Assembly (NCBI RefSeq): GCF_016031655.1
Contig: NZ_JACCHQ010000003.1
Span: 186,001-250,000 of the forward strand
DNA: 64,000 nt
Origin: Bradyrhizobium glycinis
Lineage (GTDB): Bacteria > Pseudomonadota > Alphaproteobacteria > Rhizobiales > Xanthobacteraceae
Direction: 5' to 3'
Translations under genes and position numbers: made by a program
The notes under the pieces: model-generated
Databases searched by the model: none
Seen by the model: the letters and a program-made list of their open reading frames with translations, nothing else
Told to the model about the DNA's origin: nothing
Part shown: piece by piece, positions 12,061-33,964 of the stretch
Layout of the letters: each line of letters starts with the position of its first letter
Numbering within the stretch: the first letter of the stretch is position 1

Positions 12061-12389
12061 CGTTTGAGGTCCAGCGTCCGTCGACAGACGCAAATGAATT
12101 TCAGGGATCCGAACAGCCGCCGTTGGCCCAGCCCTCTGTCTCGAAGGATGAGCCGGAAACCGGGCTCGATTGTTCGGGGATTTCAAGGCCGCGCCGGAAA
12201 TCCGCGTCTAACGGGCCGGCTGCGAGTGCGGGGTATCTACTGCGGATGGGACCAAAGGTCAAGGTATAGAGAGGTCGCGCCGGCAGGCCGCCCTTCCCCG
12301 GACGCCCGTGCAGAAGCCATGTGGATCAAGGACTTGTCGACCGCCCGGAACGCGCCATCCCAGGGAAGGCCATCGGGAGCCCGGCACCG
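12061..12389. other. Junction spacer between secE and the carbohydrate island
   Basis: A 329-bp non-coding stretch joining the conserved secE cluster to the first island gene. It contains the probable secE promoter (12234-12262). I looked for a copy of the tRNA-Trp 3' end, which would mark an attachment site, and found none. No integrase or insertion-sequence remnant is visible. Confidence 0.6.
12234..12262 (-). promoter_or_regulatory. Sigma70-like promoter for secE-nusG
   Basis: On the minus strand TTGACC is followed after exactly 17 bases by TAGATA, a good match to -35/-10 consensus. It lies 174 bp before the secE ATG in the correct orientation, giving the cluster a start point independent of tRNA-Trp. 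Confidence 0.6.
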
Positions 12390-14769: not shown

Positions 14770-15381
14770 TCAGGACGCAGGATATTCCGCACGACCAATG
14801 ACGAGGTCGATTGCGGCCATCATCCAGAACTGGTGCGTGGTCTCGACAATGTTGTAGCTGCGGCTGTCTACCCAGAAATTGACGTCACCGAGATTGCGCA
14901 GCGGATTGTCGGCGTTCATGCCCGACAACGTGATCACGTCGAGCTTCATCTTGCGCGCCTGCGCGACCGCGTTGAGGATATTCTTCGAACGCCCCGACGA
15001 GCTGATCGCGACGAGGCAATCGCCGGCGCGCGCATTCAGCCGCACGGCGTGGGCGATCCAGTCCTCGAATCCGTAATCGTTGGCAAGGCACGACATCATG
15101 CTCGCATCGCTGAAACAGAGTGCAGGCACCGACGCATTCTTCGCCAGATCGATCGCCAGATGCGAGGCAATCCCGGCCGATCCGCCGTTGCCAATGAAGA
15201 TGACGCGGCCGCCCTGCTCGCGCGTGCGCAACCAGGACGCGCGCGTCGCGGAGATCCTCGCAAAAATACCGTCGTCGACCGCCGTCGCGCGATGCAGGCG
15301 TCCCACGTAATCATCGAGGAAGGCTTTGTGCTCGGGATCGACGGATTCGGCAGGCATGGGCTGGCGGCTCGATTGCAACAT
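14770..15381 (-). CDS. SIS-domain sugar-phosphate isomerase (GmhA-like)
   Basis: A 203-residue protein with one SIS (sugar isomerase) domain, most like phosphoheptose isomerase GmhA, which converts sedoheptulose 7-phosphate to a heptose 7-phosphate. Seen: the phosphate-binding loop FIGNGGSAGIASHLAIDL, the Ser-rich loop LVAISSSGRSKNI and a C-terminal active-site-like helix IVETTHQFWMMAAID. The ATG at 15379-15381 and a second one 24 bp downstream (MPAESVDPEH) are both possible; neither has a strong ribosome binding site. It is divergent from the main plus-strand operon, and with the HldE-like fusion and the HAD phosphatase it completes a heptose-type activation set. Confidence 0.78.
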   Translation of the reverse strand: MLQSSRQPMPAESVDPEHKAFLDDYVGRLHRATAVDDGIFARISATRASWLRTREQGGRVIFIGNGGSAGIASHLAIDLAKNASVPALCFSDASMMSCLANDYGFEDWIAHAVRLNARAGDCLVAISSSGRSKNILNAVAQARKMKLDVITLSGMNADNPLRNLGDVNFWVDSRSYNIVETTHQFWMMAAIDLVIGRAEYPAS

Positions 15382-15522
15382 CACGGGGTGATACCGGCTA
15401 TTACCAAGGATTGCAAAGGTATAATACTTGCAAAGTTTGCGAGCGGCTGATAGTCGGCTTTCGGGTTTCACTCAACATTGGCGGGCCTATTTCGCTGGGC
15501 ATTCGCGTCACGGATGTTCCCC
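15382..15522. promoter_or_regulatory. Divergent promoter region of the sugar island
   Basis: This 141-bp AT-richer gap separates the minus-strand SIS/UPF0104/methyltransferase genes from the long plus-strand operon. A short palindrome GCAAAGTTTGC (15430-15440) and a TATTAT box on the minus strand lie close together. No convincing -35 box could be fixed for either direction, so the promoter call rests on gene arrangement. Confidence 0.4.
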
Positions 15523-16539
15523 ATGAAATGCATCGTTACTGGCGGCGCCGGTTTCATTGGAAGTCACCTCGTCGATCGCCTGCTCGATGACGGCCACGAG
15601 GTCACCGCGCTCGATGATTTCGTAATCGGACGCGCCGAAAACCTCGCCGCGCGCGCCGGTTCAAGCCAGTTGAAGGTCGTGCGGGCGGACGTCACCGATC
15701 TCGACGCGATCAAACCGTATTTCCACGGGGTGGATTGGGTGTTCCATCTCGCCGCGCTGGCGGACATCGTTCCCTCGATCGAGTCGCCGATTCCCTATCA
15801 TCGCGCCAATGTCGACGGCACGGTCAACGTTCTCGAGGCGGCGCGGCACGCGGGCGCCAAGCGCTTCATCTATGCGGCTTCCTCCTCCTGTTACGGCATT
15901 CCGGATGTTTATCCCACGCCGGAGAGTGCCGAGATCCGGCCGATGTATCCCTATGCGCTCACCAAGAATCTCGGCGAGCAATGCGTCATGCACTGGTGCC
16001 AGGTCTACAAGCTGCCCGCCGTGGCGCTGCGCCTGTTCAACGTGTTCGGACCGCGCCATCGCACCACCGGCACCTACGGTGCCGTGTTCGGCGTGTTCAT
16101 GGCACAGAAGCTCGCGGGCAAGCCCTTCACGGTGGTCGGCGACGGCGAGCAGACGCGCGACTTCACCTTCGTCAGCGACGTCGCCGATGCCTTCGTGACC
16201 GCCGCGCGCTCCGATGTCTCACACGAGATCTTCAATGTCGGCTCGGACAACACCTACAGCGTGAACCGCCTGGTCGAGCTCCTCGGCGGCGACAAGGTCC
16301 ACATTCCCAAGCGTCCCGGCGAGCCCGATTGCACCTACGCCGACATCAGCAAGATCAAGCGCATCCTGAAATGGGCGCCGAAGGTGAAGTTCGAGGACGG
16401 CGTCGCGACGATGTTGAAATCGATGGACCAGTACAAGGACGCTCCGCTCTGGACGGTGGACAAGATCGCTGACGCCACCAAGGACTGGTTCAAATATCTC
16501 GGTGACAACGGGGTCACCCCGCAGAAGGCAAGCCGTTGA
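15523..16539 (+). CDS. NAD-dependent sugar epimerase/dehydratase (extended SDR)
   Basis: A 338-residue extended short-chain dehydrogenase acting on nucleotide sugars. The start was placed at MKCIVTGGAGFIGSHLVDRL, where the Rossmann motif GxxGxxG begins directly; upstream in-frame ATG and GTG codons exist. The catalytic tyrosine and lysine are in YPYALTKNLGEQ, preceded by the AASSSCYG serine stretch. UDP-glucose 4-epimerase-type enzymes are the nearest relatives by eye, but 4,6-dehydratases share this fold, so the exact reaction is open. It is the first gene of the plus-strand operon and is followed after 87 bp by the nucleotidyltransferase/kinase fusion. Confidence 0.85.
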   Translation: MKCIVTGGAGFIGSHLVDRLLDDGHEVTALDDFVIGRAENLAARAGSSQLKVVRADVTDLDAIKPYFHGVDWVFHLAALADIVPSIESPIPYHRANVDGTVNVLEAARHAGAKRFIYAASSSCYGIPDVYPTPESAEIRPMYPYALTKNLGEQCVMHWCQVYKLPAVALRLFNVFGPRHRTTGTYGAVFGVFMAQKLAGKPFTVVGDGEQTRDFTFVSDVADAFVTAARSDVSHEIFNVGSDNTYSVNRLVELLGGDKVHIPKRPGEPDCTYADISKIKRILKWAPKVKFEDGVATMLKSMDQYKDAPLWTVDKIADATKDWFKYLGDNGVTPQKASR

Positions 16540-16626
16540 GCAGATTCGTTCATCCCCAAATTTTGCCGCCAGCCGATCACGTCCGGGCCGGCCAACTGAG
16601 ACCGACCGGCGCCTTGGGTCATTCAC

Positions 16627-18192
16627 ATGGGTAATGCTGCGACAGAGAGGCCGGCCGGCCATCCGGCACCGCACGAGAAGATCAAGACGATCGAGGAACT
16701 CGGCGAGATTGCGCGCGCCGCACAGGCTAAGGGCCTGACCGTTGCGCTCTGCCACGGCGTGTTCGATCTGGTGCATCTCGGTCACGTCCGGCACATCCTG
16801 GCAGCCCGCAACGAGGCCGACGTCGTCATGGTGACCATCACCGCCGACCGTTACGTCAACAAAGGCCCGGGACGACCGATCTTTCCGGAGAACATGCGCG
16901 CCGAGATGCTGGCCGCACTCGGCACGGTCGACTGGGTCGGCATCAATCAGACCTCCAGCGCCGAGCCGGTCCTCGATACCGTGCGCCCCGACATCTACGT
17001 GAAGGGCTCGGACTACGAGAATCCCGAGGATGACGTTACCGGCAAGATCGCGGTGGAGCGCGAGGCGGTCGAGCGTCACGGCGGGCGAATCGTCTTCACG
17101 CGCGACGTGACGTTCAGCTCGTCGTCGCTGCTGAACCGCTATTTCGACATCTACGATCCCCCCTTGCGCGACTACCTCCAGAAGGTGCGCGATGGCGGCG
17201 GCGCCGAACGCCTGCTGAAACTGATCGACAAGATCCAGGACATGCACGTCGTGCTGGTCGGCGACACCATCATCGACGAATACCAATACGTCACGGCGCT
17301 CGGAAAGGCCTCCAAGGAGAACATCGTCGCGACCCTTTTCAAGAATGGCGAGCAGTTTGCCGGCGGGGTCATTGCCGCGGCCAATCACGTCGCGAGCTTC
17401 TGCAAGTCGGTCGAGATCGTCACGACGCTGGGTGGCAACGACTACCCCGAAGAGTTCATTCGAGCGCATGTCCGCCCGAACGTCACGCTCACGCCGATCC
17501 GCGTTCAGGGCCGTCCGACCACCCGCAAGCTGCGGTACGTCGAGATGGGCTATCTGCACAAGCTGTTCGAAGTCTACACGATGGACGACACGCCGCTCGA
17601 CGAGGCCGCGCGCACGGAGATCGACCGCGTCACCGCCGAGCGCGTCCGCGGGGCCGACGTCGTCATCGTCACCGATTTCGGTCACGGCATGATCGCATCC
17701 AGCACGATCGACGCCCTGATCGCGAATTCCAAGTTCCTGGCCGTCAATGCCCAGAGCAACAGCGGCAACCACGGCTACAACCTGATCACGAAGTATCCGC
17801 GGGCCGATTACATCTGCATCGACGCACCGGAAGCGCGGCTGGCGGCCACAGACAAGTTCAACGAGATCGCATCGGTGATCCAGGACGGCCTGCATCGCAA
17901 GATCGATTGCGACAACATGATCATCACGCACGGCTCCTTCGGCTGCTACCCCTTCTCGTCGAAGACCGGCGTTGCGCGCGTCCCCGCTTTCACCAAGACC
18001 GTCGTCGACACCGTCGGTGCGGGCGATGCCTTCCTGACGATCACGGCGCCGCTGGTGGCGGCCGGCGGCAACATCGAGGACGTCGCCTTCATCGGCAATG
18101 CGGCGGGCGCGATCAAGGTCGGCATCGTCGGTCACCGCAACTCGGTCGAGAAGCCGCCGCTGGTCAAGTTCGTCACCGCGTTGTTGAAGTAG
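16627..18192 (+). CDS. Bifunctional nucleotidyltransferase - sugar kinase, HldE-like with reversed domain order
   Basis: A 521-residue fusion. Residues ~35-165 are a cytidylyltransferase-fold nucleotidyltransferase like RfaE domain II (CHGVFDLVHLGH, with HLGH at 50-53, and a VTFSSSSLLNRY end). Residues ~195-520 are a PfkB/ribokinase-fold kinase like RfaE domain I, with the catalytic DTVGAGDAF at 461-469. In canonical HldE the kinase comes first, so the order is inverted here. The expected chemistry is phosphorylation of a heptose 7-phosphate (or similar sugar phosphate) at C1, then nucleotidyl transfer to give an NDP-sugar; the base is unknown. The kinase half is divergent, so its substrate may not be a standard heptose. 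It belongs to the main sugar operon. Confidence 0.82.
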   Translation: MGNAATERPAGHPAPHEKIKTIEELGEIARAAQAKGLTVALCHGVFDLVHLGHVRHILAARNEADVVMVTITADRYVNKGPGRPIFPENMRAEMLAALGTVDWVGINQTSSAEPVLDTVRPDIYVKGSDYENPEDDVTGKIAVEREAVERHGGRIVFTRDVTFSSSSLLNRYFDIYDPPLRDYLQKVRDGGGAERLLKLIDKIQDMHVVLVGDTIIDEYQYVTALGKASKENIVATLFKNGEQFAGGVIAAANHVASFCKSVEIVTTLGGNDYPEEFIRAHVRPNVTLTPIRVQGRPTTRKLRYVEMGYLHKLFEVYTMDDTPLDEAARTEIDRVTAERVRGADVVIVTDFGHGMIASSTIDALIANSKFLAVNAQSNSGNHGYNLITKYPRADYICIDAPEARLAATDKFNEIASVIQDGLHRKIDCDNMIITHGSFGCYPFSSKTGVARVPAFTKTVVDTVGAGDAFLTITAPLVAAGGNIEDVAFIGNAAGAIKVGIVGHRNSVEKPPLVKFVTALLK

Positions 18193-18219
18193 CGCGATCG
18201 AAGAATCCGGAGAACGACA

Positions 18220-19221
18220 GTGATTGATCGGAAATGGAATGTGATGGTCACCGGTGGCGCCGGCTATGTCGGCAGCGTGCTGGTTCCGCAATTGCTTGCC
18301 GCGGGCCACAAGGTCACCGTGCTCGACTTGTTCATGTATGGCGAGGACGTCTTCGACGCCGTTCGTGACAATGCGAACCTCCGCCTGATCAAGGGCGACA
18401 TCCGCGATGAGGCCGCCGTCAACGAGGCCCTGCGCGGCAACAACGCGGTGATCCACCTCGCCTGCATCTCCAACGATCCCTCGTTCGAGCTGGATCCGGC
18501 GCTCGGCAAGTCCATCAACTACGATTGCTTCCGTCCGATGGTGCGCGCCGCGAAGAAGGCGGGTGTCGAGCGCTTCATCTACGCCTCCTCGTCGAGCGTC
18601 TACGGCATCAAGGACGAGGCCGAGGTGACCGAGGAGCTGTCCTGCGAGCCGCTCACCGACTACTCCAAGTTCAAGGCGATGTGCGAGACCGATCTTGCCG
18701 ACGAGGCCGCGTCCGGCTTCGTCACCTGCACCGTTCGCCCCGCCACCGTCTGCGGCTACGCTCCGCGGCAGCGGCTCGACGTCGTCGTCAACATCCTGAC
18801 CAATCTCGCCGTCAACACCGGCCGCATCCGCGTGTTCGGCGGAACGCAGAAGCGGCCCAATCTGCACATCCAGGACATGACGGCGGCCTATCTGTTCCTG
18901 CTGCAGCAGGATGATGCGAAGATCGACGGCAAGACCTACAACATCGGCTACGAAAACCACTCGCTGATGAAGATCGCCGACATCGTCAAATCGGTGGTCG
19001 GCAACAATGTCGACGTGGCCGTCGAGCCGACCGACGATCTCCGTTCCTACCACGTGTCGTCGGAGAAGATCCGCCGCGAGCTCGGGTTTGCGCCGACGCA
19101 CACGATCGAGCAGGCCGTGTCCGGCCTAGTAGACGCCTTCAAGGCGGGCCGCCTGCCGAACTCGCTCAACGATCCCAGGTATTTCAACATCAAGATGATG
19201 CAGAACATCAGCCTGAAGTGA
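18220..19221 (+). CDS. NAD-dependent epimerase/dehydratase (extended SDR)
   Basis: A 333-residue extended SDR starting at GTG (18220) with a GGAGA box about five bases upstream. The Rossmann motif is VTGGAGYVGSVLVPQLL. The Ser/Tyr/Lys active site is ASSSSVYG followed by YSKFKAMCE. The remainder has the NDP-sugar binding C-terminal domain. It follows the HldE-like gene by 27 bp and overlaps the HAD gene by four bases (GTGA). It probably epimerises or dehydrates the activated sugar made by the preceding gene; the precise reaction cannot be read from sequence. Confidence 0.82.
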   Translation: MIDRKWNVMVTGGAGYVGSVLVPQLLAAGHKVTVLDLFMYGEDVFDAVRDNANLRLIKGDIRDEAAVNEALRGNNAVIHLACISNDPSFELDPALGKSINYDCFRPMVRAAKKAGVERFIYASSSSVYGIKDEAEVTEELSCEPLTDYSKFKAMCETDLADEAASGFVTCTVRPATVCGYAPRQRLDVVVNILTNLAVNTGRIRVFGGTQKRPNLHIQDMTAAYLFLLQQDDAKIDGKTYNIGYENHSLMKIADIVKSVVGNNVDVAVEPTDDLRSYHVSSEKIRRELGFAPTHTIEQAVSGLVDAFKAGRLPNSLNDPRYFNIKMMQNISLK

Positions 19222-19838
19222 GCGGCGTGCGGATCGGCATCGATTTCGACAACACGATCATCTGCTACGACAAGGTCTTTGCCGCCGCCGCGCGCCAGCG
19301 CGGGCTGGTGCCGGAAGGCTGGGACGGGCTGAAGACCGACGTGCGGGATTTCTTGCGATCCCGCGCCGGCGGCGAGCTTGCCTGGCAAGGGCTGCAGGGC
19401 TTCGTCTACGGCAAGGGAATCGGCGGCGCCGAGATCAACCCTGGCGTCCGCGAGTTCCTTGCCGCGTGCCGCAAGGCCGGTGCGAGCGTCCATATCGTCA
19501 GCCACAAGACGCAGTTCGGCCATCAGGATCCCGATCGGGTCGACTTGCGCGAGGCTGCGCGTGGCTGGCTGAAGAGCGCGGGCCTCATCGACACCGCCGA
19601 CGCCGCGATCTCGGCGGGCAATGTCTATTTCGAGGACACGCTGGCGGCCAAGGTCGAGCGATTGGCGAGCCTGCAGCTCGACGTCTTCATTGACGATCTC
19701 GTCGACGTGTTCGAGCAGCCGCATTTTCCGAGGGCGACGCGATCGATCCTGTTCACGCAGTCGCGACCGCCGCATCCCGCGCATTGCGAGCCGCTCGCGA
19801 CCTGGGCCGATATCCACCGCGGAGTGTTCGGCGCATGA
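19218..19838 (+). CDS. HAD-superfamily phosphatase-like protein
   Basis: A 206-residue HAD-like hydrolase. Motif I is IDFDNT (D9 and D11), a serine motif occurs in VHIVSHKTQFG, and the acidic motif IV is FIDDLVDVF near residue 160. All catalytic positions appear present, so it is likely an active phosphatase, but it is not the classical GmhB type and its substrate is unknown. It overlaps the preceding epimerase by four bases (GTGA) and the following APH-fold gene by four bases (ATGA), so the three are tightly translationally coupled. Removal of a sugar phosphate in the island pathway is the likely job. Confidence 0.72.
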   Translation: MSGVRIGIDFDNTIICYDKVFAAAARQRGLVPEGWDGLKTDVRDFLRSRAGGELAWQGLQGFVYGKGIGGAEINPGVREFLAACRKAGASVHIVSHKTQFGHQDPDRVDLREAARGWLKSAGLIDTADAAISAGNVYFEDTLAAKVERLASLQLDVFIDDLVDVFEQPHFPRATRSILFTQSRPPHPAHCEPLATWADIHRGVFGA

Positions 19839-20872
19839 GCCAGCCGGACATCAGCGTACAGGATGCGGTTTCGATCGGCGGCCGCCTCTCCGGGGCGCGG
19901 GTCGCGGCGGCGCAACCGGCGCGGGCCGGCGGCAACAACCGGGTGTTTCGGCTGGAGATGGCGGAAGGCCCGCCCCTCGCTCTCAAGCACTATCCGTCCG
20001 ACGGACGTGATCGCCTGGGACAGGAATATGACGCGCTTTCGTTTCTCTCGCGCCACGGCATCAATGCGACGCCGCGGCCGATCGCAAAAGATCCGGCCGC
20101 GTTCTGTGCGCTGTATCAATGGTTCGACGGTGACCCCGCGGTCCTGCATCCGCAGCCCGACGACGCCGACCGGTTGGCCGATTTCCTGATCGAGCTGCAA
20201 AAGCTGCGCGACGCTGAAGGCGCGCGGACTCTGCGGAATGCGTCAGCCAGCATCTTTTCGCCCGAGGCAGCCATCGCCCAGTACGAGCAACGCCTCGACG
20301 GACTGAGGCGGGCTTCGGATGATCATCCGGATCTGCGCGCGTTCATTGATGGCAGCCTGGTTCCCACCGCTGCCATCGCGATCCGGCAACTCCGACGACG
20401 TTATGCGGAACGGGGCCTGGATCCCGCCGCGGACCTCGCGCCCGCCCAACGCGCGTTGAGCCCGTCGGATTTCGGACTGCACAACGCATTGCGTACCGAC
20501 GACGGCAAATTGCGCTTCGTCGACTTCGAGTATTTCGGCTGGGACGACCCGGTCAAGCTCGTGTCCGACACCGCGATTCACCCCGGCAGCGGTCTGCCCG
20601 AGGCCGATGCGAACCGATTGATCGAGCGATTCTCGCGCGCCTTCGCGGCTGGGGATGACGCGTTTGCGGTCCGCCTTGACGTACTGTATCCTGTGTTCGG
20701 GGCGATTTGGTGCCTGATTGTCCTGAATGCCTATCTGCCGGAAAGCCGCTCCCGGCGTGCCCTGGCTGCGCAAGGTGGCGATCTGACGGTCCGCCTTGCC
20801 GGCCAGCTCGACAAAGCCCGTCGGCTCCACCAAACGATTTGCCAACGTGATCCAGATCTCACCCCACGCTGA
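19835..20872 (+). CDS. APH-fold phosphotransferase
   Basis: A 345-residue protein of the aminoglycoside phosphotransferase/choline kinase fold. The ATP-binding Lys is in PLALKHY. The catalytic loop reads SPSDFGLHNAL, where the usual HGD becomes PSD while the Asp is kept. The metal-binding Asp is in FVDFEYFGWDDP. It starts at ATG 19835, overlapping the HAD gene stop. Within the operon it probably phosphorylates a sugar or amino-sugar intermediate rather than conferring drug resistance. Its C-terminus overlaps the start region of the transketolase gene. Confidence 0.72.
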   Translation: MSQPDISVQDAVSIGGRLSGARVAAAQPARAGGNNRVFRLEMAEGPPLALKHYPSDGRDRLGQEYDALSFLSRHGINATPRPIAKDPAAFCALYQWFDGDPAVLHPQPDDADRLADFLIELQKLRDAEGARTLRNASASIFSPEAAIAQYEQRLDGLRRASDDHPDLRAFIDGSLVPTAAIAIRQLRRRYAERGLDPAADLAPAQRALSPSDFGLHNALRTDDGKLRFVDFEYFGWDDPVKLVSDTAIHPGSGLPEADANRLIERFSRAFAAGDDAFAVRLDVLYPVFGAIWCLIVLNAYLPESRSRRALAAQGGDLTVRLAGQLDKARRLHQTICQRDPDLTPR

Positions 20873-21695
20873 AGCTGCTCTCACCTGCACGCTGGACGAG
20901 CGCAGCCTTTATTTGCGCCGCCTGGTCCTCGGTTCTGTCCGCTCCGCAGGACGCGGCCATGTCGGGCCTGCCCTGTCGCTGATCGAGATGGTCCGCGTGC
21001 TCTACGACGACGTGTTGCGGATCGACCCGAAGAACCCGGGCGATCCCGATCGCGACCGCGCCATCCTAAGCAAGGGACACGGATGTCTGGCGCTCTATGC
21101 GCTATTGGCCGACCGCGGCTTCTTCCCGCTGTCGGAGCTGGACGGCTTTTGCGGTCCCGACAGCATTCTGGGCGGACATCCCGAATACGGCATGGTGCCC
21201 GGCGTCGAGGCCTCGACCGGCGCGCTCGGACATGGCCTCTCGATCGGCGTCGGCCTTGCGCTCGCCGCCCGCATGCGCGAGCGCAGCTACCGCACCTTCG
21301 TGCTGCTCGGCGACGGCGAGATCAACGAGGGATCGGTGTGGGAAGCGGCGATGGGCGCGGCCAAGCACGGCCTCGACAACCTCGTCGCGCTGATCGATTA
21401 CAACAAGCTGCAGAGCTACGGCCCAACCGACTACGTGCTGCCGCTGGAGCCACTCGCGGACAAGTGGCGCAGCTTCGGCTTCGCGGTGCAGGAGGTCAAC
21501 GGCCACGACGTCGGCGCGCTGCGCACGGTCCTGAAGCAGCTTCCGGCCGTTGCGGGCAAGCCCACCGCCATCATCTGCCATACCGTCAAAGGCAAGGGTC
21601 TTCCGGCTGCGGAATCCAATGCCGATTGGCATCACAAGAACAAGCTGACCGACAGCGAGCTCGAGGCCATTCGCGTCGCCGTCGGCGATTTTTGA
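20847..21695 (+). CDS. Transketolase-like protein, N-terminal (ThDP-binding) subunit
   Basis: About 282 residues matching the first half of transketolase. Seen: SAGRGHVGPALSLIEMV, the conserved SKGHGCLALYALLAD and the thiamine diphosphate motif GDGEINEGSVWEAAM followed after the usual spacing by DYNK. The start is uncertain; a GTG at 20847 is given, and a TTG further up is possible. The partner half is the next gene, 10 bp downstream. Split transketolases in sugar clusters move two-carbon ketol units and could build or extend a sugar skeleton; the donor and acceptor cannot be told from sequence. Confidence 0.85.
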   Translation: MIQISPHAEAALTCTLDERSLYLRRLVLGSVRSAGRGHVGPALSLIEMVRVLYDDVLRIDPKNPGDPDRDRAILSKGHGCLALYALLADRGFFPLSELDGFCGPDSILGGHPEYGMVPGVEASTGALGHGLSIGVGLALAARMRERSYRTFVLLGDGEINEGSVWEAAMGAAKHGLDNLVALIDYNKLQSYGPTDYVLPLEPLADKWRSFGFAVQEVNGHDVGALRTVLKQLPAVAGKPTAIICHTVKGKGLPAAESNADWHHKNKLTDSELEAIRVAVGDF

Positions 21696-21705
21696 TCGGC
21701 TCCCC

Positions 21706-22665
21706 ATGCGCAACACCGCGATGAATATGGTCCACAAGCTCGCCGCGCGCGACGAGCGTGTGCTCTACATCGGCTCCGACCCCGGCGCCGGCACGCTGCG
21801 CGCGATGAGTGAGGAATTCCCCAAGCGCCATCTAATCGAGGGCATCTCGGAAGCGCATATCATCGGCATGTCGGCCGGTCTCGCGATGGAGGGCTTCGTG
21901 CCCTACGTCAACACCATTGCGACCTTCCTCACCCGCCGCTGCTACGAGCAAGTGGCAGTCGATCTCTGCCTGCACAATCTGCCGGTGCGGCTGATCGCCA
22001 ATGGCGGTGGCCTGGTCTATGCGCCGCTCGGTCCCACGCACCAGGCGATAGAAGATATCGCCATCATGCGGGCGCTGCCGAACATGACGGTGATCTGCCC
22101 GTGCGACGCCGACGAGGCCGCGCGCATGATGGAGCAGACGCTGGATTGGAAGGGTCCGATCTACATCCGGCTCGGCAAGGGCGGCGATGCCATCGTGTCC
22201 AGGGCCGAGCACGGCTTTGAGATCGGCAAAGCCATCCTGATGCGGCCGCCCGGCGACGTTCTCATGGTGACCACCGGCATCATGCTGCAGCGGGCGCTGG
22301 CTGCAGCCGACCTGCTGGCCGCGCAAGGCATTCGCGCCGGCATCCTGCACATGCACACCGTGAAACCGCTCGACACCGCCGCGCTGCTGCAGGCGATCCG
22401 CGGCACCAGGCTCGTTGCGACGCTGGAGGAGCACGTGCCCTCCGGCGGCCTCGGCAGCGCAGTCGCGGAGGCGCTGATCGACAAGCTCGGCTCCGGTTTT
22501 CCTGCGATGCTGCGGCTGTCGCTGCCGGACCGCTTCATGCACAATTACGGTTCGCAGGATTCGCTGCTGAAGAAACACGGGCTCTCCGCCAACGCCATTG
22601 CGACCTCGATCGAGCATGCTCTCGCGGCGTCGCGTCCCCCCTCTCCTCAACTTCATTCCACCTGA
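21706..22665 (+). CDS. Transketolase-like protein, C-terminal subunit
   Basis: A 319-residue protein covering the pyrimidine-binding and C-terminal domains of transketolase / DXP-synthase-like enzymes. The catalytic Glu that activates thiamine is expected in EGISEAHIIGMSAGLAMEG. The aromatic-rich segment and VTTGIMLQRALAAADLL in the C-terminal domain are as in the family. It pairs with the preceding gene to form one active enzyme, and the two together equal a normal transketolase in length. It is followed eight bases later by the first DegT aminotransferase. Confidence 0.85.
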   Translation: MRNTAMNMVHKLAARDERVLYIGSDPGAGTLRAMSEEFPKRHLIEGISEAHIIGMSAGLAMEGFVPYVNTIATFLTRRCYEQVAVDLCLHNLPVRLIANGGGLVYAPLGPTHQAIEDIAIMRALPNMTVICPCDADEAARMMEQTLDWKGPIYIRLGKGGDAIVSRAEHGFEIGKAILMRPPGDVLMVTTGIMLQRALAAADLLAAQGIRAGILHMHTVKPLDTAALLQAIRGTRLVATLEEHVPSGGLGSAVAEALIDKLGSGFPAMLRLSLPDRFMHNYGSQDSLLKKHGLSANAIATSIEHALAASRPPSPQLHST

Positions 22666-22673
22666 CGGGTCAC

Positions 22674-23780
22674 ATGTACGACGTTCGATATTCCTATCTG
22701 CTCGAGCAATTCGCGGATCCCGCACCCATCCTCGCCGAGATCGGCCGGCTGGTAGCGACCGGTGACTTCACCCTTGGCAAGCCCGTTGCCGAATTCGAGA
22801 AACGCTTTGCCGAATTGATCGGCGTCCGTCACGCCATCGGCGTCGGATCCGGCACCGATGCGCTCAAGCTGCCGCTCAAGGCGCTCGGCATCGGGCATGG
22901 CGATGAGGTCATCACCGCCGCGAACACCTTCATCGCCACGGTCGGCGCGATCGCGGAAACCGGCGCGACGCCGGTGCTGGTCGATTGCGACGATTCCTTC
23001 TGCATGAACGTGGACCAGGTCGAGGCTGCGATCACCAAGAAGACCAAGGCGATCATGCCGGTCCAGCTGACCGGCGAGGTCACCGACATGGGCAAGCTGA
23101 TGCCGATCGCGCAGCGCCACAACCTGCCTGTGGTCGAGGATGCCTGCCAGGGCATCCTGTCGGAGTTTGCGGGAAAACGCTCCGGTACCCACGGTATCGC
23201 GGCCGGCTTCTCGCTGCATCCGCTCAAGAACCTCAACGTCTGGGGCGACGCCGGCGTCGTCGTCACCAATGACGACGACATGAACGAAAAGCTCCGCCTG
23301 ATCCGCAACCACGGCATGAAGAACCGCGACGAGATCGCGATTCTCGGCTGCAACTCGCGGCTCGATTCCTTGCAGGCCGTGGTCGGCAACTGGCTGATCG
23401 GCCAGACCAGCGAGATCACGCGCCGCAGAATCGAAAATGCGGCCTATTACGATGCGGGTCTCGCCGGCGTGCCCGGCCTGCGCATCCCGCCGCGCCGTCC
23501 CAACGTGAAGCACGTCTATCATCTCTACATGGTGTTCGCCGATCGTCGCGACGAGCTCTACAAATATTGCCTGGACAGCGGCATCGAGGCCAAGATCCAC
23601 TATCCGATCCCGCTGTATCAGCAGGAAGGCTTGAAGCATCTCGGCTACGCGCCCGGCACGTTCCCGGTCACCGACCGCCATGCCAAGGAAGTCATCAGCT
23701 TCCCCGTCGACCAGCATCTGACGCGCGCCCAGCAAGACCGCGTCATCGAGACCGTCAGGAAGTTCTGCCATGGACGCTGA
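22674..23780 (+). CDS. DegT/DnrJ/EryC1 aminotransferase (sugar), copy 1
   Basis: A 368-residue PLP-dependent aminotransferase that would install an amino group on a keto sugar. Seen: GSGTDALKLPLKALGIG (PLP phosphate region), the Asp in VEDACQG that contacts the ring nitrogen, and the Schiff-base Lys in SLHPLKNLNVWGDAG. Its end overlaps the next gene by 11 bases. The second gene encodes a clear paralogue with the same HPLKNLN active-site motif, so the two probably arose by tandem duplication and may act at different carbons or form a heterodimer. Confidence 0.88.
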   Translation: MYDVRYSYLLEQFADPAPILAEIGRLVATGDFTLGKPVAEFEKRFAELIGVRHAIGVGSGTDALKLPLKALGIGHGDEVITAANTFIATVGAIAETGATPVLVDCDDSFCMNVDQVEAAITKKTKAIMPVQLTGEVTDMGKLMPIAQRHNLPVVEDACQGILSEFAGKRSGTHGIAAGFSLHPLKNLNVWGDAGVVVTNDDDMNEKLRLIRNHGMKNRDEIAILGCNSRLDSLQAVVGNWLIGQTSEITRRRIENAAYYDAGLAGVPGLRIPPRRPNVKHVYHLYMVFADRRDELYKYCLDSGIEAKIHYPIPLYQQEGLKHLGYAPGTFPVTDRHAKEVISFPVDQHLTRAQQDRVIETVRKFCHGR

Positions 23781-24888
23781 CACCGGCCGCCGGCGCATCG
23801 GTTACGTCAATCTTCCCGCGCAGTTCGAGGAAGAGCGCGCCGAGATCATGCAGGCGGTCGAGGGCGTGTTCCAGCGCGGCGATTTCATCGGCGGGGCGGC
23901 GGTTGCCAAGCTCGAGGAGGAATTGTCCGCCTATCTCGGCTCGCCGCACGTCGTGACGCTGAACTCGGGCACCGACGCGCTGATCCTTGCCATGCGGGCG
24001 CTCGACATCGGTCCCGGCGACGAGGTGATCACGCCGCCGAATTCGTTCGTGGCATCGACCGCGGCGATCATCGCGGTCGGCGCCACGCCGGTGTTTGCCG
24101 ACGTGCTGCCGGACCAGAACATCGACCCCGCCGCGGTCGAAGCCGCCGTCACGCCGCGGACCAAGGCGATCATGCCGGTGCATCTGACCGGACGCATGGC
24201 CGACATGGCTCCGCTGATGGCAATCGCTGCCAAGCACGCGCTCGCCGTGATCGAGGACAGCGCCCAGGCGGTCGGCTCGAGCTACGACGGCCGCATGAGC
24301 GGCACCATCGGCACGTTCGGCTGCTTCTCCGCCCACCCCTTGAAGAATCTCAATGCCGCGGGCGATGCCGGCTTCCTCGTCACCGCCGACGCCGAGCTTG
24401 CCGCAAGAATCCGACGGCTGCGCAATCACGGCCTGATCAACCGCAGCGATGTCCAGGAATGGGGGATCGTGTCGCGGCTCGACACGCTGCAGGCCGAGGT
24501 GCTGCGCATTCGCCTGCGTCATCTGCCCTCGGTGATCGAACGCCGGCGGCGCAACGCCGCGCAATACCGCGCCGAGCTCGCCGGCCTGCCCCTGTTCATT
24601 CCGCCCTGCCGGAACATCGAGTTCAACACCTTCCACACCTTCGTGGTGCAGACCGAACGTCGCAACGACTTCCAGAAATATCTTGCCGAGAAGGGCATCG
24701 AGACCGCGATCCACTATCCGGTCCCGATCCACCTGCAGCCGGCAGCGGCGCATCTCGGCCACGGCCGCGGCGCGTTCCCGGTGACGGAACGGCAGGCGGA
24801 CCAGATCCTCACGCTTCCCATCAACCAGTTCCTGTCGGCCGCCGACATCAGCTATATTTGCGCGACCGCCCGGGAGTATTTTGCATGA
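23770..24888 (+). CDS. DegT/DnrJ/EryC1 aminotransferase (sugar), copy 2
   Basis: A 372-residue PLP-dependent sugar aminotransferase. Family features are LNSGTDALILAMRALDIG, the Asp in VIEDSAQAVGSSYDG and the catalytic Lys in SAHPLKNLNAAGDAG. It overlaps the upstream paralogue by 11 bases and the following oxygenase by four bases (ATGA). Two aminotransferases in one operon suggest either a diamino sugar or transfer to two different intermediates. Confidence 0.88.
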   Translation: MDADTGRRRIGYVNLPAQFEEERAEIMQAVEGVFQRGDFIGGAAVAKLEEELSAYLGSPHVVTLNSGTDALILAMRALDIGPGDEVITPPNSFVASTAAIIAVGATPVFADVLPDQNIDPAAVEAAVTPRTKAIMPVHLTGRMADMAPLMAIAAKHALAVIEDSAQAVGSSYDGRMSGTIGTFGCFSAHPLKNLNAAGDAGFLVTADAELAARIRRLRNHGLINRSDVQEWGIVSRLDTLQAEVLRIRLRHLPSVIERRRRNAAQYRAELAGLPLFIPPCRNIEFNTFHTFVVQTERRNDFQKYLAEKGIETAIHYPVPIHLQPAAAHLGHGRGAFPVTERQADQILTLPINQFLSAADISYICATAREYFA

Positions 24889-25691
24889 CGGACACGGACT
24901 TCCTGCACGCCGACGAGCAGGCGCTGGCGCAACGCTTCATCGACGATGGCTTCGTCACCACCCCGGCCGACGATCGCGCCGGGCTCGACCGGATCCAGCG
25001 CCGTGCCGCCGAGCTCGCGGCCGACTACCTGAAGCTGCCGCACGGCAACGATCCCTACGCGATGCTCGACACCATCCACACGCGGGTGAGCGTGGATGAT
25101 CTCAACGGCCTGCGGCTGCATGTCTTCAACGGCCTCAACGCCGAGCCCTGGTTCCGGCCGACCTATTTCCGCCTGGCGCGCTCGACGATCGAGACCATCG
25201 TCGGCAACGAGCTCTGCATGCAGCGCCGCGTCAATCTCAGCATCCAGCTTCCCGGCGACAGCTCCTCGCTGCTCGCCACCCATTCCGACGTCTGGTCGGG
25301 CGACTCGCCGTTCGAGGTCGTGGTTTGGGTGCCCCTTGTCGACGTCCACCGCACCAAATCGATGTATCTGCTGCCGCCGTCCCTGAACGGCGAGATGCAG
25401 GACCGCATGGCGGCCTTGCGCAGCGCCGAAGAGCTGTACAAGACCATCAAGCCGCACGCGACCTTCATCGAGATCCCCTACGGTCACGTCATGCTGTTCA
25501 ACCAGACCCTGATGCACGGCAATCGCGTCAACGAGGAAGCCGGCACGCGCTGGAGCATGAATTGCCGCTTCAAGAGCATCATGTCGCCCTACGCGGACAA
25601 GCGCTTCGGCGAGTTCTTCGAGCCGATCCTGCTGCGCCCCGCAACCCGGGTCGGGATGCAGTACAAGCTGCCGGGAGGCTTCCATGGCTGA
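24885..25691 (+). CDS. 2-oxoglutarate/Fe(II)-dependent oxygenase of sporadic carbohydrate clusters
   Basis: A 268-residue protein with the iron-binding facial triad of the 2OG-Fe(II)/phytanoyl-CoA dioxygenase type: H133 and D135 in THSDVW, and H211 in LMHGNRV, followed by an Arg (R223 or R228) to bind 2-oxoglutarate. It starts with the ATGA overlap of the aminotransferase. From memory, this combination next to the LIC12192-type protein is found in sporadically distributed carbohydrate clusters (for example in Leptospira). It likely hydroxylates the sugar or a bound intermediate; the substrate is unknown. Confidence 0.72.
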   Translation: MTDTDFLHADEQALAQRFIDDGFVTTPADDRAGLDRIQRRAAELAADYLKLPHGNDPYAMLDTIHTRVSVDDLNGLRLHVFNGLNAEPWFRPTYFRLARSTIETIVGNELCMQRRVNLSIQLPGDSSSLLATHSDVWSGDSPFEVVVWVPLVDVHRTKSMYLLPPSLNGEMQDRMAALRSAEELYKTIKPHATFIEIPYGHVMLFNQTLMHGNRVNEEAGTRWSMNCRFKSIMSPYADKRFGEFFEPILLRPATRVGMQYKLPGGFHG

Positions 25692-26076
25692 GCGAGCCGG
25701 CCACCGCGGCTATATCGGCGCCCGGCCGCTGAACGGCAGCCGCACCCCCCAGCACGTCCAGAACATCGTGATCCGCGACTATGCGCGGCGCAAGAACCTG
25801 CACTATCTATTGAGCGCCGCCGAGCACACCATGCCCGGCAGCTACATGGTGCTGGAAGACATCCTGGACGAGCTGCCGCAGCTGCGTGGGCTAATTCTCT
25901 ACAGCATCTTCATGCTGCCGCCCGACGAGGCTCGGCGGCGGCAGATCTACGACCGCGTGCTGCGCGAGGGCTGCGACCTCCACGCCGCGGTCGAGGAGAT
26001 CACGCTGGCGTCGCAGAAGGATATCCAGGCCGTCGAGGACATCCTGCTCGTCAACAAGTTCGCAACCATCCTGTGA
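25684..26076 (+). CDS. LIC12192-type sporadic carbohydrate cluster protein
   Basis: A 130-residue protein with no catalytic motif I can name. Its opening (GYIGARPLNGSRTPQHVQN, then a conserved-looking IVIRDY and LHYLLSAAEH) resembles the LIC12192 family defined by presence in sporadic carbohydrate clusters. It overlaps the oxygenase gene by eight bases. No signal peptide or membrane segment is seen, so it is cytoplasmic. The function is unknown; the tight linkage to oxygenase and aminotransferases suggests a step on the same sugar, either catalytic or as a partner subunit. Identification is from memory of the family. Confidence 0.68.
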   Translation: MAERAGHRGYIGARPLNGSRTPQHVQNIVIRDYARRKNLHYLLSAAEHTMPGSYMVLEDILDELPQLRGLILYSIFMLPPDEARRRQIYDRVLREGCDLHAAVEEITLASQKDIQAVEDILLVNKFATIL

Positions 26077-26101
26077 CGATGCCGCGGAGCAGTTGGCCCC
26101 C

Positions 26102-26767
26102 ATGACCGAGATCAACCTGCTCCAGCCGATGCACGCATCGACGAAGCGGGATTACGTCCAGCGCGTGGTCGAGCACGACAAGGCGGAATCCGCCACTGTG
26201 GCGCGGCAATGGGGACGCGACTATTGGGACGGCGACCGGCGCTACGGCTACGGCGGCTATCGCTATGACGGACGGTGGCGCCCGCTGGCCCAGACCCTGA
26301 TCGATCGCTACGACATCAAGCCGGGCATGAGCGTGCTCGACGTCGGCTGCGGCAAGGGCTACCTACTCTACGAGTTCACCCAGCTCGTGCCCGATCTCAC
26401 GATCGCCGGCATCGACATCTCCGAGTACGGCATCGCCAACGCCAAGGAGGAGGTGCGGCCGCATTTGAGGGTCGGCAGCGCCGTCGAGCTCCCCTACCCC
26501 GACCACAGCTTCGATCTCGTCGTCTCGCTCGGCGTGCTGCACAACCTTCCGCTCGAGGACGTGTTCCGAGCGGTGCCCGAGATCGAGCGGGTCGGACGCG
26601 GCACCTCGAAATATCTGATGGTCGAATCCTTCCGCAACGAGCGCGAGAAGGCCAATCTGCTCTACTGGCAGCTCACCTGCCTGAGCTTCCACGGCCCGCA
26701 AACGTGGGCCTGGATCTACGACAAATGCGGGTATCGGGGCGACCATGGGTTCATCTTCTTCGAATGA
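26102..26767 (+). CDS. SAM-dependent methyltransferase
   Basis: A 221-residue class I methyltransferase with motif I VLDVGCGKGYLLYEF, followed by IAGIDISEYGI and the post-I acidic residue. The Tyr/Gly-rich N-terminal segment DYWDGDRRYGYGGYRYDG is unusual and probably forms a substrate-binding lid. The ATG at 26102 is given; a TTG nine bases upstream has a closer GGAG box and is an alternative. It lies 25 bp after the LIC12192-type gene and overlaps the cupin gene. It is likely an O- or N-methyltransferase for the island sugar. Confidence 0.78.
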   Translation: MTEINLLQPMHASTKRDYVQRVVEHDKAESATVARQWGRDYWDGDRRYGYGGYRYDGRWRPLAQTLIDRYDIKPGMSVLDVGCGKGYLLYEFTQLVPDLTIAGIDISEYGIANAKEEVRPHLRVGSAVELPYPDHSFDLVVSLGVLHNLPLEDVFRAVPEIERVGRGTSKYLMVESFRNEREKANLLYWQLTCLSFHGPQTWAWIYDKCGYRGDHGFIFFE

Positions 26768-27329
26768 GGCAGGCCTGCGCCGGACGACCTCGATGCGCGC
26801 GCAAAATCCGGAAGTGTACTATTCGGACGATGCCATCGTCACCGCCGATGACGCCACGATCGCGGAGCTGAAGCGCATCGCCGCCGGCAACCCACGTCTG
26901 CGCAGCCGGCTTTGCACGCATCCCGATCCCTCGTCCGGACTGCACGAGATGCTGATCGTGCATCATCGCGAAGCTTACGTGCGGCCGCACAAGCACCTCG
27001 GCAAGCCTGAATCGTTCTACGTGATCGAGGGCACCGCGCAGGTCGTGATCTTCGAGGACGACGGCCGCATTCGCGAGGTGCTCGAGATGGCGCCCTACGG
27101 TCAGGGCAAGCGCTGCTACTATCGCATGCCGGAACAGGTCTTCCACTCAATCCTGATCACCTCGGAATGGCTGGTGTTCCACGAAACCACTGCCGGCCCG
27201 TTCGACCCCTCCCGCACCGTCTTTCCCGACTGGGCACCCGACGGCAGCGACGCCGCCGAAGTGCGCGACTACGTCACGCAGATCGCCGGGCTCGCCATCG
27301 AACATCAAGGCCGCGATGCGAGGGCCTGA
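26745..27329 (+). CDS. WbuC-family cupin metalloprotein
   Basis: Up to 194 residues with a single cupin barrel like the WbuC family found in O-antigen and sugar clusters. Seen: the opening region RLCTHPDPSSGLHEMLIV, the metal-ligand cluster HREAYVRPHKHLGKPESFYV and a second cupin motif around FHSILITSEWLVFHETT. The ATG at 26745 overlaps the methyltransferase. An internal ATG at 26793 (MRAQNPEVYYSDD) fits the family's conserved start better and is an alternative. WbuC proteins have no settled reaction; isomerase or epimerase activity on sugars is plausible. Confidence 0.75.
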   Translation: MGSSSSNEAGLRRTTSMRAQNPEVYYSDDAIVTADDATIAELKRIAAGNPRLRSRLCTHPDPSSGLHEMLIVHHREAYVRPHKHLGKPESFYVIEGTAQVVIFEDDGRIREVLEMAPYGQGKRCYYRMPEQVFHSILITSEWLVFHETTAGPFDPSRTVFPDWAPDGSDAAEVRDYVTQIAGLAIEHQGRDARA

Positions 27330-32923: not shown

Positions 32924-33964
32924 GTGAGGCCAGGCATTGGCATCATCGGGACAGGCATGGTCGGCCAGATGTGCCACCTCGCCAATTTCGCTGCCAATCC
33001 GGCCTGCCGCGTCGTCGCGATCGCCGATCTCCGGCCGGATCTCGCTGCCGCCGCAGCGCAGAAGTTCGGCATCTCGCAGGTCTACAGCACGCATCGGGAG
33101 CTGCTCGCGGACGCTGCGGTCTCCGCCGTGGTCGTCGTGACGAAGCGGCGAGCCACCGGTCCGATCGTCCTTGACGCGCTGAACAGCGGTCGCCACGTGC
33201 TGTCGGAGAAACCGATGGCCTACACGACGGCTCAGGCGACGATTCTGGTCGAAGCGGCGCGGCAGCGAAACCTCGTCTACAGCATTGGCTACATGAAGCG
33301 TCACGATGCCGGTGTGGCGCGCGCGCTCGAGCTGCTGACGCGCTTGCGCAACGACCGATCGCTCGGAGGCGTGGTCCGCGCCAAGGCCTGGTGCTTCGGC
33401 GGCGACACCGGCCGGTCGCGCGACAATTTCGTCATGACCGGCGAACCACGGCCGGACGGGATCGAACTCTGGCACGACGGTCCCGACTGGATGCCGAGCG
33501 CGATGCGGGCCGGCTACGATAACTTTCTGAACGTCTTCAGCCATATCATCAACCTGGCGCGCTACCTGCTCGGATCATCGCCAACGGTCGCCGACAGCTC
33601 CGTCGAAACTTCGGGAGCCGCGCGCATCACCCTCGACTTCGATGGCATCGCTTGTACGCTGGATCTCGTGAACGGGTCCGGCGGAGCCTGGCGCGAGGGA
33701 CTGACGATCGATTTCGAGCGCGGGGCGGTGACCTTGAAATTGCCTCCGCCCTTTGCCGAGCAAGAGGCGGAGGTCATCGTCGAGCACGATGGTCAAAGCA
33801 CGCATCTGACGGGTGAAGAGAGCTGGGCATTTCGGCGCCAGGCCGACGCCTTCGTTTCCGATATCGCCGACGGACGCACACCCCTGGCCTCCGGCGAGGA
33901 CTCGATGACCGACATCGCGCTTGCAGAGGCGGTCTGGAAGCGGCGGGCTAGCGGCCAGGCGTGA
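32924..33964 (+). CDS. Gfo/Idh/MocA family oxidoreductase
   Basis: A 346-residue NAD(P)-dependent oxidoreductase starting at GTG (32924), three bases after the upstream stop. The Rossmann motif is GIIGTGMVGQM. The family signature EKPMAY carries the lysine that binds nicotinamide and substrate. YMKRHDAGV lies at the usual next conserved position. Such enzymes oxidise or reduce sugar rings (inositol 2-dehydrogenase, glucose-fructose and UDP-sugar 3-dehydrogenases). Generation of a keto sugar for a DegT aminotransferase is one plausible role. Its end overlaps the convergent membrane-protein gene by 17 bases. Confidence 0.82.
   Translation: MRPGIGIIGTGMVGQMCHLANFAANPACRVVAIADLRPDLAAAAAQKFGISQVYSTHRELLADAAVSAVVVVTKRRATGPIVLDALNSGRHVLSEKPMAYTTAQATILVEAARQRNLVYSIGYMKRHDAGVARALELLTRLRNDRSLGGVVRAKAWCFGGDTGRSRDNFVMTGEPRPDGIELWHDGPDWMPSAMRAGYDNFLNVFSHIINLARYLLGSSPTVADSSVETSGAARITLDFDGIACTLDLVNGSGGAWREGLTIDFERGAVTLKLPPPFAEQEAEVIVEHDGQSTHLTGEESWAFRRQADAFVSDIADGRTPLASGEDSMTDIALAEAVWKRRASGQA

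What the first reader, a model, noticed from the sequence alone, without database searches (positions are those of the whole stretch)
15523..27329. Unassigned higher-carbon or branched amino-sugar pathway built around split transketolase, reversed HldE-like fusion and LIC12192-type protein
Seen in sequence: thirteen plus-strand genes, mostly overlapping, encode two SDR epimerases, a nucleotidyltransferase-kinase fusion, HAD phosphatase, APH-fold kinase, two-subunit transketolase, two DegT aminotransferases, a 2OG-Fe(II) oxygenase, an LIC12192-type protein, a methyltransferase and a WbuC-type cupin, with a GmhA-like isomerase divergent. Known of the families: GmhA plus kinase/nucleotidyltransferase plus HAD phosphatase is the logic of NDP-heptose synthesis, and transketolase moves two-carbon ketol units. 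Inference: the product is an aminated, hydroxylated and methylated NDP-sugar whose carbon skeleton is built or extended by the transketolase. Bradyrhizobia are known for an odd ten-carbon sugar (bradyrhizose) in some O-antigens whose biosynthesis I do not know; a link is possible but speculative.
Basis: partly seen in the sequence, partly recalled or inferred. Interest (0 to 1): 0.85.

Follow-up and report, generated by a model that had tools for sequence, protein, structure and literature searches.

The report
Sister operon of the bradyrhizose locus
A block of neighbouring genes in a soil bacterium is related to the gene locus behind bradyrhizose, a unique ten-carbon bacterial surface sugar, and it likely builds another unusual long-carbon sugar with an altered transketolase, which would make the chemistry of such sugars testable.

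Summary
In detail: 13 plus-strand genes (15,523-27,329) plus a divergent SIS isomerase, with the domains described. Each of the 14 is found in 60-63 of 63 other Bradyrhizobium loci carrying the LIC12192 gene; parts of the set recur in 37 loci of other bacteria. The genome has two full-length transketolases elsewhere.

The speculative bradyrhizose hint led somewhere. Published gdh primers (PMC4743980; insertion mutants lose bradyrhizose) map inside an eleven-gene locus sharing HldE-like, SDR, both transketolase halves, HAD, APH and methyltransferase homologs with the window. It is a sister locus, not the same one: RmlB-type gdh, NTP-transferase and zinc dehydrogenase are absent here, and none of 265 genomes holds both marker genes.

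Both transketolases keep their catalytic Glu but have Gly, Leu, Lys at acceptor positions His469, Asp477, Arg528 in every readable copy. Best reading, inferred: ketol transfer onto a non-phosphorylated heptose-derived carbonyl; 7+2+1 carbons equals bradyrhizose's ten. LIC12192 has a predicted serine-recombinase fold. No chemistry was tested.

The parts
14770..15471 (-). SIS-domain isomerase, GmhA-like, divergent
   Evidence: TIGR00441 87.2 bits (cut-off 209.45); SIS_2; nearest solved: phosphoheptose isomerases
15523..16539 (+). SDR1, GalE/LegB-like SDR
   Evidence: sequence shows SSSCYG, not the TDE type of 4,6-dehydratases (motif recalled)
16627..18192 (+). HLDE: nucleotidyltransferase then PfkB kinase (reversed HldE order)
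   Evidence: best relative in G099 and G246 is in the gdh locus
18220..19221 (+). SDR2, extended SDR
   Evidence: 43% identical to the SDR of the gdh locus
19218..19838 (+). HAD-like predicted phosphatase
   Evidence: no family hit; single relative in each of G099, G246, G026 lies in the gdh locus
19835..20872 (+). APH-fold kinase (stretch 19838-20872 searched)
   Evidence: PF01636; 37% to the APH of the gdh locus
20862..21695 (+). TKN, transketolase N half (exact start unsure)
   Evidence: nearest solved: split transketolase 6yak
21706..22665 (+). TKC, transketolase C half with altered acceptor site (G100, L108, K158)
22674..23780 (+). AT1, DegT aminotransferase with PLP lysine
23770..24888 (+). 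AT2, DegT aminotransferase with PLP lysine
24885..25691 (+). OXY, 2OG-Fe(II) oxygenase TIGR04324 (stretch 24888-25691 searched; HxD...H present)
25684..26076 (+). LIC12192-family protein TIGR04323, predicted serine-recombinase fold
26102..26767 (+). MT, SAM methyltransferase (stretch 26105-26767 searched)
   Evidence: 57-58% to the methyltransferase of the gdh locus
26745..27329 (+). WbuC-family cupin TIGR04366
12390..13775 (-). C-methyltransferase CMT1 (flank, same island)
   Evidence: PF08421/PF13489/PF08484
13741..14757 (-). flippase-like TM protein (flank)
   Evidence: TIGR00374
29162..30310 (+). flippase-like TM protein (flank)
   Evidence: PF03706
30500..31705 (+). C-methyltransferase CMT2 (flank)
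32924..33964 (+). GFO/IDH/MocA oxidoreductase (flank)
36937..37692 (+). GT2 glycosyltransferase (flank)

Best explanation
The operon is a relative of the eleven-gene locus in photosynthetic bradyrhizobia whose disruption removes the bradyrhizose O-antigen, and it likely makes a related nucleotide-activated higher-carbon sugar, in which a split transketolase is predicted to add two carbons to a non-phosphorylated sugar carbonyl. Shown: gene content, homology, shared replacement of acceptor-binding residues. Inferred steps: the SIS isomerase and the HldE-like fusion (with a phosphatase) would make an NDP-heptose or similar C7 sugar; an SDR, or OXY in place of the zinc dehydrogenase of the sister locus, would expose an aldehyde or ketone; the transketolase would transfer a ketol unit there (C9); the methyltransferase would add one carbon; the two aminotransferases would add amino groups in the Bradyrhizobium version. 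In the bradyrhizose locus the same count, 7+2+1, gives ten carbons, and an aldol closure between C4 and C9 would give its inositol ring.
For: Co-occurrence of the 14 genes in 60-63 of 63 genus loci and of parts of the set in other bacteria. Published gdh primer cores match the sister locus in 7 of 7 genomes, 0+0 mismatches in G246; the ORS278 rfaL primer is found in 7 of 7 at up to 3 mismatches, with 0 in G099, G231 and G246, 18-45 kb from gdh (45 kb in G246; paper: about 44 kb in ORS285) (distances my arithmetic). The sister locus has 11 genes in a row in L199, HLDE to MT, seven related to the window at 28-57% identity, plus an SIS of the same family with weak pairwise similarity. For TKC (7 genomes), HLDE (2), HAD (3) and MT (3) the best genome-wide hit in the photosynthetic genomes tested lies in this locus. 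Acceptor residues replaced alike: H469 to G and D477 to L in 62 of 62, 33 of 33 and 7 of 7 readable loci (genus, others, sister); R528 to K in 62, 34 and 7 of the readable; catalytic Glu kept in 62, 32 and 7. PMC5851014 passages: His469 binds acceptor phosphate, Asp477 the acceptor 2-OH; PMC5573996 passages: Arg528 binds the phosphate; PMC10787763 passages: engineered E. coli variants changed at the matching Asp, Arg and Ser accept bulky aromatic aldehydes. Ring closures at O-4, O-5 and O-9 (PMC9912281 passages) imply a C4-C9 bonded nonose plus one carbon.
Against: No enzyme or glycan was tested. The gdh mutants may be polar (stated in PMC4743980). The window lacks the RmlB-type gdh, NTP-transferase and zinc dehydrogenase; the sister lacks OXY, LIC and aminotransferases. 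SIS similarity between the two is weak (35% over 84 aa). The joint clade of the two TKC types has only moderate support (91/79) with long branches, and the TKN tree is unresolved. Loss of His469 and Asp477 is not unique: another split TK in two of these genomes has Leu and Tyr there. Point mutants do not simply support the reading: yeast D477A keeps 1-2% activity and H469A considerable activity (PMC5851014), and R528K effects on aliphatic aldehydes were minor (PMC5573996). The sister TKN has Ser for the first Gly of GDG in 7 of 7. The roles of HAD and APH beside a transketolase without a phosphate site are unexplained. The tenth carbon of bradyrhizose as a C-methyl is recalled, not read.
Confidence: 0.55

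Rival explanations
1. The transketolase acts first: it makes an unusual ketose phosphate (heptulose or octulose phosphate) that the SIS isomerase, kinase, phosphatase and nucleotidyltransferase turn into an NDP-octose or NDP-heptose, as the transaldolase does in lincosamide biosynthesis.
For: The order ketose phosphate, GmhA-like isomerase, kinase, phosphatase, nucleotidyltransferase fits the gene set; lincosamide clusters list transaldolase, isomerase, kinase, phosphatase and nucleotidyltransferase (PMC12945683 table seen in passages).
Against: The residues that hold the acceptor phosphate and 2-OH are replaced in all readable copies, odd for a sugar-phosphate acceptor; ordinary sedoheptulose phosphate needs no dedicated enzyme since two full transketolases exist.
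Confidence: 0.25
2. The operon is a patchwork of two separate pathways, an NDP-heptose branch and a transketolase branch making a small precursor (for example an acyl or ether substituent), whose products meet only in the glycan.
For: Module turnover: in L070/L144 transketolase, APH and HAD are replaced by divergent homologs and the aminotransferases and MT are not found; the AT pair is optional elsewhere.
Against: HLDE, SDR2, HAD, APH, TK and MT recur together both in window-type operons and in the sister locus, where the O-antigen is a homopolysaccharide of one C10 sugar (PMC9912281 passage).
Confidence: 0.15
3. Ordinary heptose supply: a second copy of the LPS heptose pathway with a spare transketolase, nothing new.
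For: GmhA-like and HldE-like families.
Against: GmhA and HldE family scores are below the curated cut-offs, a canonical kinase-first HldE lies on another contig (C46), and the oxygenase/LIC pair is not part of any heptose pathway known to me.
Confidence: 0.05

Closest known systems
Bradyrhizose (gdh) locus of photosynthetic Bradyrhizobium (Busset 2016, PMC4743980)
   Same: Reversed HldE-like fusion, SDR2, SIS isomerase, split transketolase with the same altered acceptor residues, HAD, APH and methyltransferase in one operon
   Different: Window has no RmlB-type gdh, no NTP-transferase, no zinc dehydrogenase; it adds OXY, LIC12192, two aminotransferases and another type of SDR1
NCBI 'sporadic carbohydrate cluster' families TIGR04323/TIGR04324
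   Same: LIC12192 protein and 2OG-Fe(II) oxygenase, both over curated cut-offs
   Different: The family entries as shown name no pathway or product; here they are placed in a transketolase operon
NDP-heptose pathway (GmhA, HldE, GmhB, HldD)
   Same: Isomerase, kinase, phosphatase, nucleotidyltransferase, SDR logic
   Different: GmhA and HldE scores below cut-off, fusion order reversed, transketolase and oxygenase added, canonical HldE elsewhere
Lincosamide octose pathway
   Same: Carbon-chain-building transferase combined with isomerase, kinase, phosphatase, nucleotidyltransferase, epimerase and transaminase-type enzyme (PMC12945683)
   Different: Transaldolase there, split transketolase here; no sequence homology tested
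Split transketolase of Carboxydothermus hydrogenoformans (6yak, PMC7661550)
   Same: Two-gene architecture and best solved match for both halves
   Different: It keeps His, Asp and Arg at the acceptor positions in the printed alignment

Membership tests
Bradyrhizose (gdh) locus | RmlB-type gdh between SIS and TKN, with NTP-transferase and zinc dehydrogenase in the operon | tested here: not met
   None among the window operon's genes; its other SDR is GalE/LegB-like
Bradyrhizose (gdh) locus | HldE-like fusion, SDR2, split TK, HAD, APH, MT | tested here: met
   28-57% identity for the seven proteins
Bradyrhizose (gdh) locus | Produces bradyrhizose | not testable with these tools
   needs glycan analysis
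TIGR04323 / TIGR04324 | Score over curated cut-off | tested here: met
   170.4 vs 55 and 340.5 vs 150 bits
GmhA / HldE equivalogs | Score over curated cut-off | tested here: not met
   87.2 vs 209.45; 150.6 vs 521 bits
Transketolase (ThDP enzyme) | ThDP catalytic Glu and the other active-site His residues (numbering recalled) | tested here: met
   Glu and five His kept in 62 of 62 readable genus loci and 7 of 7 sister loci; in the other loci kept where readable, save one Tyr for H481; the sister reads SDG for GDG
Canonical transketolase acceptor site | His469, Asp477, Arg528 (yeast numbering) | tested here: not met
   G, L, K in every readable copy
Serine recombinase | Catalytic-domain fold | tested here: met
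Serine recombinase | Nucleophilic serine two residues after the first active-site Arg | tested here: inconclusive
   Residue 16, assigned by eye from a recalled motif, is Ser in 0 of 32; but residue 13 is Ser in 25 of 32 (Ala in the window) and no superposition was inspected
Lincosamide octose pathway | Transaldolase | tested here: not met
   No transaldolase domain among the operon's Pfam hits

The most novel reading that the evidence does not exclude
Bradyrhizose and a whole family of unassigned alphaproteobacterial surface sugars are made by one chemistry: a split transketolase freed from phosphate recognition couples a two-carbon ketol to a carbonyl of an NDP-heptose, an aldol step closes an inositol-type ring fused to the pyranose, and lineage-specific enzymes (zinc dehydrogenase, or oxygenase plus a recombinase-fold LIC12192 enzyme, plus aminotransferases) decorate it; the window operon makes an aminated cousin of bradyrhizose.
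Probability: 0.27. Interest if true: 0.92.

Novelty: new variant of a known kind. Interest (0 to 1): 0.8.

Why it matters
How the ten carbons of bradyrhizose are assembled is not described in the four papers of the library that hold the word (passages read in each); PMC4743980 calls the genes unknown before proposing the gdh cluster. The comparison points to a transketolase in that mutant-defined locus, gives a carbon count (7+2+1) and a residue signature, and shows that relatives of this operon are spread over many Alphaproteobacteria and a few other groups under family names without a function. If right, it gives glycobiology a C-C bond-forming step on activated sugars, a natural transketolase with a rebuilt acceptor site for synthesis, and gene targets for rhizobial surface sugars that plants do not recognise.

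Tried and rejected
Equating the operon with the bradyrhizose locus was rejected: no overlap between 64 genomes with TIGR04323 and 16 with the sister-type TKC at E <= 1e-100 among 265; zero overlap may reflect phylogeny. A first idea that the two loci were unrelated (none of the 11 genomes with the lower-scoring pufM type has LIC12192) was overturned. A lincosamide-like, transketolase-first reading was kept as a rival. Fold of LIC12192: I guessed a resolvase fold from sequence before the model; the model agreed, though Foldseek E-values alone are weak (best 1.7e-3). The claim that it has lost the recombinase nucleophile was softened to inconclusive. The viral fold library, the second structure job and the last genome search were not used. 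Paper searches, listings only, that gave nothing on point: LIC12192 / sporadic carbohydrate cluster / SpoChoClust, 0 papers; transketolase with octose or higher-carbon sugar terms; O-polysaccharide of B. yuanmingense.
Full report
WHAT IS THERE. The window lies in a 7.79-Mb Bradyrhizobium genome, close to B. yuanmingense by its LIC12192 protein (98% identity to P0001). Thirteen plus-strand genes run from 15,523 to 27,329 with a divergent SIS gene at 14,770-15,471; families as in the observation check. Both DegT proteins carry the PLP lysine (61 of 61 readable genus loci each) and the oxygenase has HxD...H (63 of 63); the APH and HAD proteins keep motif residues that I name from memory. The island continues from 12,390 to 37,692 with two C-methyltransferases, two flippase-like proteins, a GFO/IDH/MocA oxidoreductase, a GT2 and two proteins that look multi-TM by eye, and sits between secE and tRNA-Trp, which looks like surface-glycan assembly.

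CO-OCCURRENCE. TIGR04323 is in 64 of 265 genus genomes and in 7 of 398 sampled across the phylum: the own genome, five more of the genus and one outside it. I fetched loci for all 63 other genus genomes and the one outside. At 60 bits or more the 14 genes are found in: SIS 60, SDR1 61, HLDE 61, SDR2 61, HAD 61, APH 62, TKN 62, TKC 62, AT1 61, AT2 61, OXY 63, LIC 63, MT 61, WBUC 62 of 63. Contig-end loci are included; L105 has only OXY, LIC and a weak SIS-like gene; SDR1 in L070 is a 30% hit, probably SDR2. A scan of named genomes with the oxygenase found 240 relatives, of which the tool kept the best 80: 43 of Bradyrhizobium type (84-100% identical) and 37 others, mostly alphaproteobacterial or unnamed proteobacterial (Azospirillum, Skermanella, Magnetospirillum and others), also MAGs labelled Stygiobacter and Chitinophaga. 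In many of those 37 the order HLDE-(SIS)-SDR2-HAD-APH-TKN-TKC-OXY-LIC-MT recurs, with rearrangements; all 37 have OXY and LIC. A window-type TKC (55% or more over a full or partial gene) was seen in 33 of the 38 outside genomes (29 in the loci, L106 included, and 4 found); the AT pair follows it in 6 of the 33. Of the rest, L160 and L162 show no TK in the DNA held; L182 and L184 are cut upstream by contig ends.

THE BRADYRHIZOSE CONNECTION. I first asked whether the producer clade has the LIC gene. PufL/M occurs in 27 of 265 genomes; 6 of these 27 have LIC12192, but none of the 11 with the lower-scoring pufM type, which I take for the Aeschynomene symbionts. Searching seven of those 11 with the window's TKC gave a 40-42% identical best hit in 7 of 7. 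Fetching the regions showed an operon with HLDE, SDR2, SIS, an SDR, TKN, TKC, HAD, APH and MT homologs. PMC4743980 (passages read) reports that insertions in gdh abolish bradyrhizose and that gdh lies in an eleven-gene cluster, syntenic in six photosynthetic strains, about 44 kb from rfaL in ORS285; polar effects were not excluded. I located the cores of its gdh primers: both match G246 with no mismatch and the other six with one to three per primer, always at the SDR between SIS and TKN (two single-primer matches elsewhere had six mismatches and were taken as chance). The ORS278 rfaL primer matches all seven at up to three mismatches, without mismatch in G099, G231 and G246; distances to gdh are about 45 kb in G246, 34-43 kb in five and 18 kb in G231 (arithmetic mine). 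In L199 the run HLDE, NTP-transferase, SDR2, SIS, gdh, TKN, TKC, zinc dehydrogenase, HAD, APH, MT counts eleven. 'Transketolase' does not occur in that paper's main text.

HOW CLOSE. Window versus sister proteins: MT 57%, TKN 46, SDR2 43, TKC 41, HAD 41, APH 37, HLDE 28; SIS 35% over 84 aa only. HAD has one relative per genome in G099, G246 and G026, always here; MT drops from E about 1e-84 here to 5.6e-11 or worse elsewhere in those three genomes; HLDE is best here at E about 1e-42 in G099 and G246, while canonical kinase-first HldE sits separately, also in the window's own genome on C46. One outside operon, L106, has window-type genes but an SIS that is 57% identical to the sister's, the only 1 of 20 scored SIS genes closer to the sister's than to the window's. 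A TKC tree of 31 rows joins window-type, sister-type and L210 with 91/79 support, with long branches; the TKN tree leaves the question open. Sister-type TKC at E <= 1e-100 is in 16 of 265 genomes, 10 of the 11 named above among them, none among the 64 with LIC12192. A full sister operon also occurs in another genus of the family (G697, L214) and in G108 (L216).

THE TRANSKETOLASE. Aligned to solved transketolases and to own-genome paralogs, the loop that in yeast carries His469 and Asp477 reads NGGGLVYAPLGPTH in the window and VGAGLAYSGLGPTH in the sister locus (one of seven with S for the second A). The yeast numbers are placed by me on these columns. Counts: H469 to Gly in 62 of 62 readable of 63 genus loci, 33 of 33 readable of 43 other loci, 7 of 7 sister loci; D477 to Leu the same; R528 to Lys 62, 34, 7; catalytic Glu kept in 62, 32, 7; H481 kept in 62, 32 (one Tyr), 7 (the 43 other loci hold five second pieces of genomes already counted). 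The four checked His of TKN are kept where readable; the sister reads SDG for GDG. Paralogs: one own transketolase keeps His and Asp; DXS and the other split TK keep Arg; but that other split TK has Leu and Tyr at 469 and 477, so losing these two is not unique. PMC5851014 (passages): His469 contacts the acceptor phosphate, Asp477 the 2-OH of erythrose 4-phosphate; H469A keeps considerable activity, D477A 1-2%. PMC5573996 (passages): Arg528 natively binds phosphate; earlier work is said to show non-phosphorylated substrates better converted by variants such as R528K, though gains on aliphatic aldehydes there were minor. PMC10787763 (passages): E. coli variants at the matching Ser, Asp and Arg accept aromatic aldehydes. 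PMC7661550 (abstract in a listing and passages): a split transketolase is active and takes bulky aldehydes. So I infer a non-phosphorylated, possibly nucleotide-linked, acceptor.

PATHWAY PROPOSAL. PMC9912281 (passages) states that bradyrhizose is a ten-carbon bicyclic sugar whose C1 aldehyde closes on OH-4, OH-5 or OH-9; closure on O-9 as a pyranose requires C9 bonded to C4, so the skeleton is a C4-C9 cyclised nonose plus one carbon. C7 from isomerase/kinase/nucleotidyltransferase logic, C2 from the transketolase, C1 from the methyltransferase give ten. Either ketol transfer to a C7 aldehyde and aldol closure on a C4 ketone, or transfer to the C4 ketone and closure on C7, yields this skeleton. 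All of this is inference. For the window, OXY-LIC follows the transketolase (after the AT pair), where the sister has its zinc dehydrogenase; OXY may supply the carbonyl. The HAD and APH roles are unexplained.

Noticed in passing
window 12390-37692: The sugar island sits between secE (11869-12186, minus) and tRNA-Trp (37791-37866, minus), next to nusG, rplA and rpoB; an empty-site comparison was not made.
   Followed up: no
Suggests swapping of a module.
   Followed up: partly
L106 1944-3011: A radical-SAM-like ORF (CxxxCxxC by eye) lies between LIC and MT, and its SIS is of the bradyrhizose-locus type (57%).
   Followed up: partly
L213 (own genome C17, about 84.0-85.5 kb): A second MT homolog (53% to the window MT) lies beside a zinc dehydrogenase 42% identical to the sister locus one.
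   Followed up: partly
L210 (Thalassobaculum genome, 4.1-10.2 kb): A more diverged set: OXY 43%, LIC 34%, SDR2, SDR1 and a split TK at 37-38% with Leu at the Asp477 position.
   Followed up: partly
L214 and L216: Complete bradyrhizose-type eleven-gene operons in another genus of the family and in a Bradyrhizobium genome without pufL/M hits (G108).
   Followed up: partly
window 36937-37692, 33948-35711, 27316-29094: GT2 plus multi-TM proteins and flippase-like genes resemble a lipid-linked sugar transfer set (GtrB/GtrC style, recalled).
   Followed up: no
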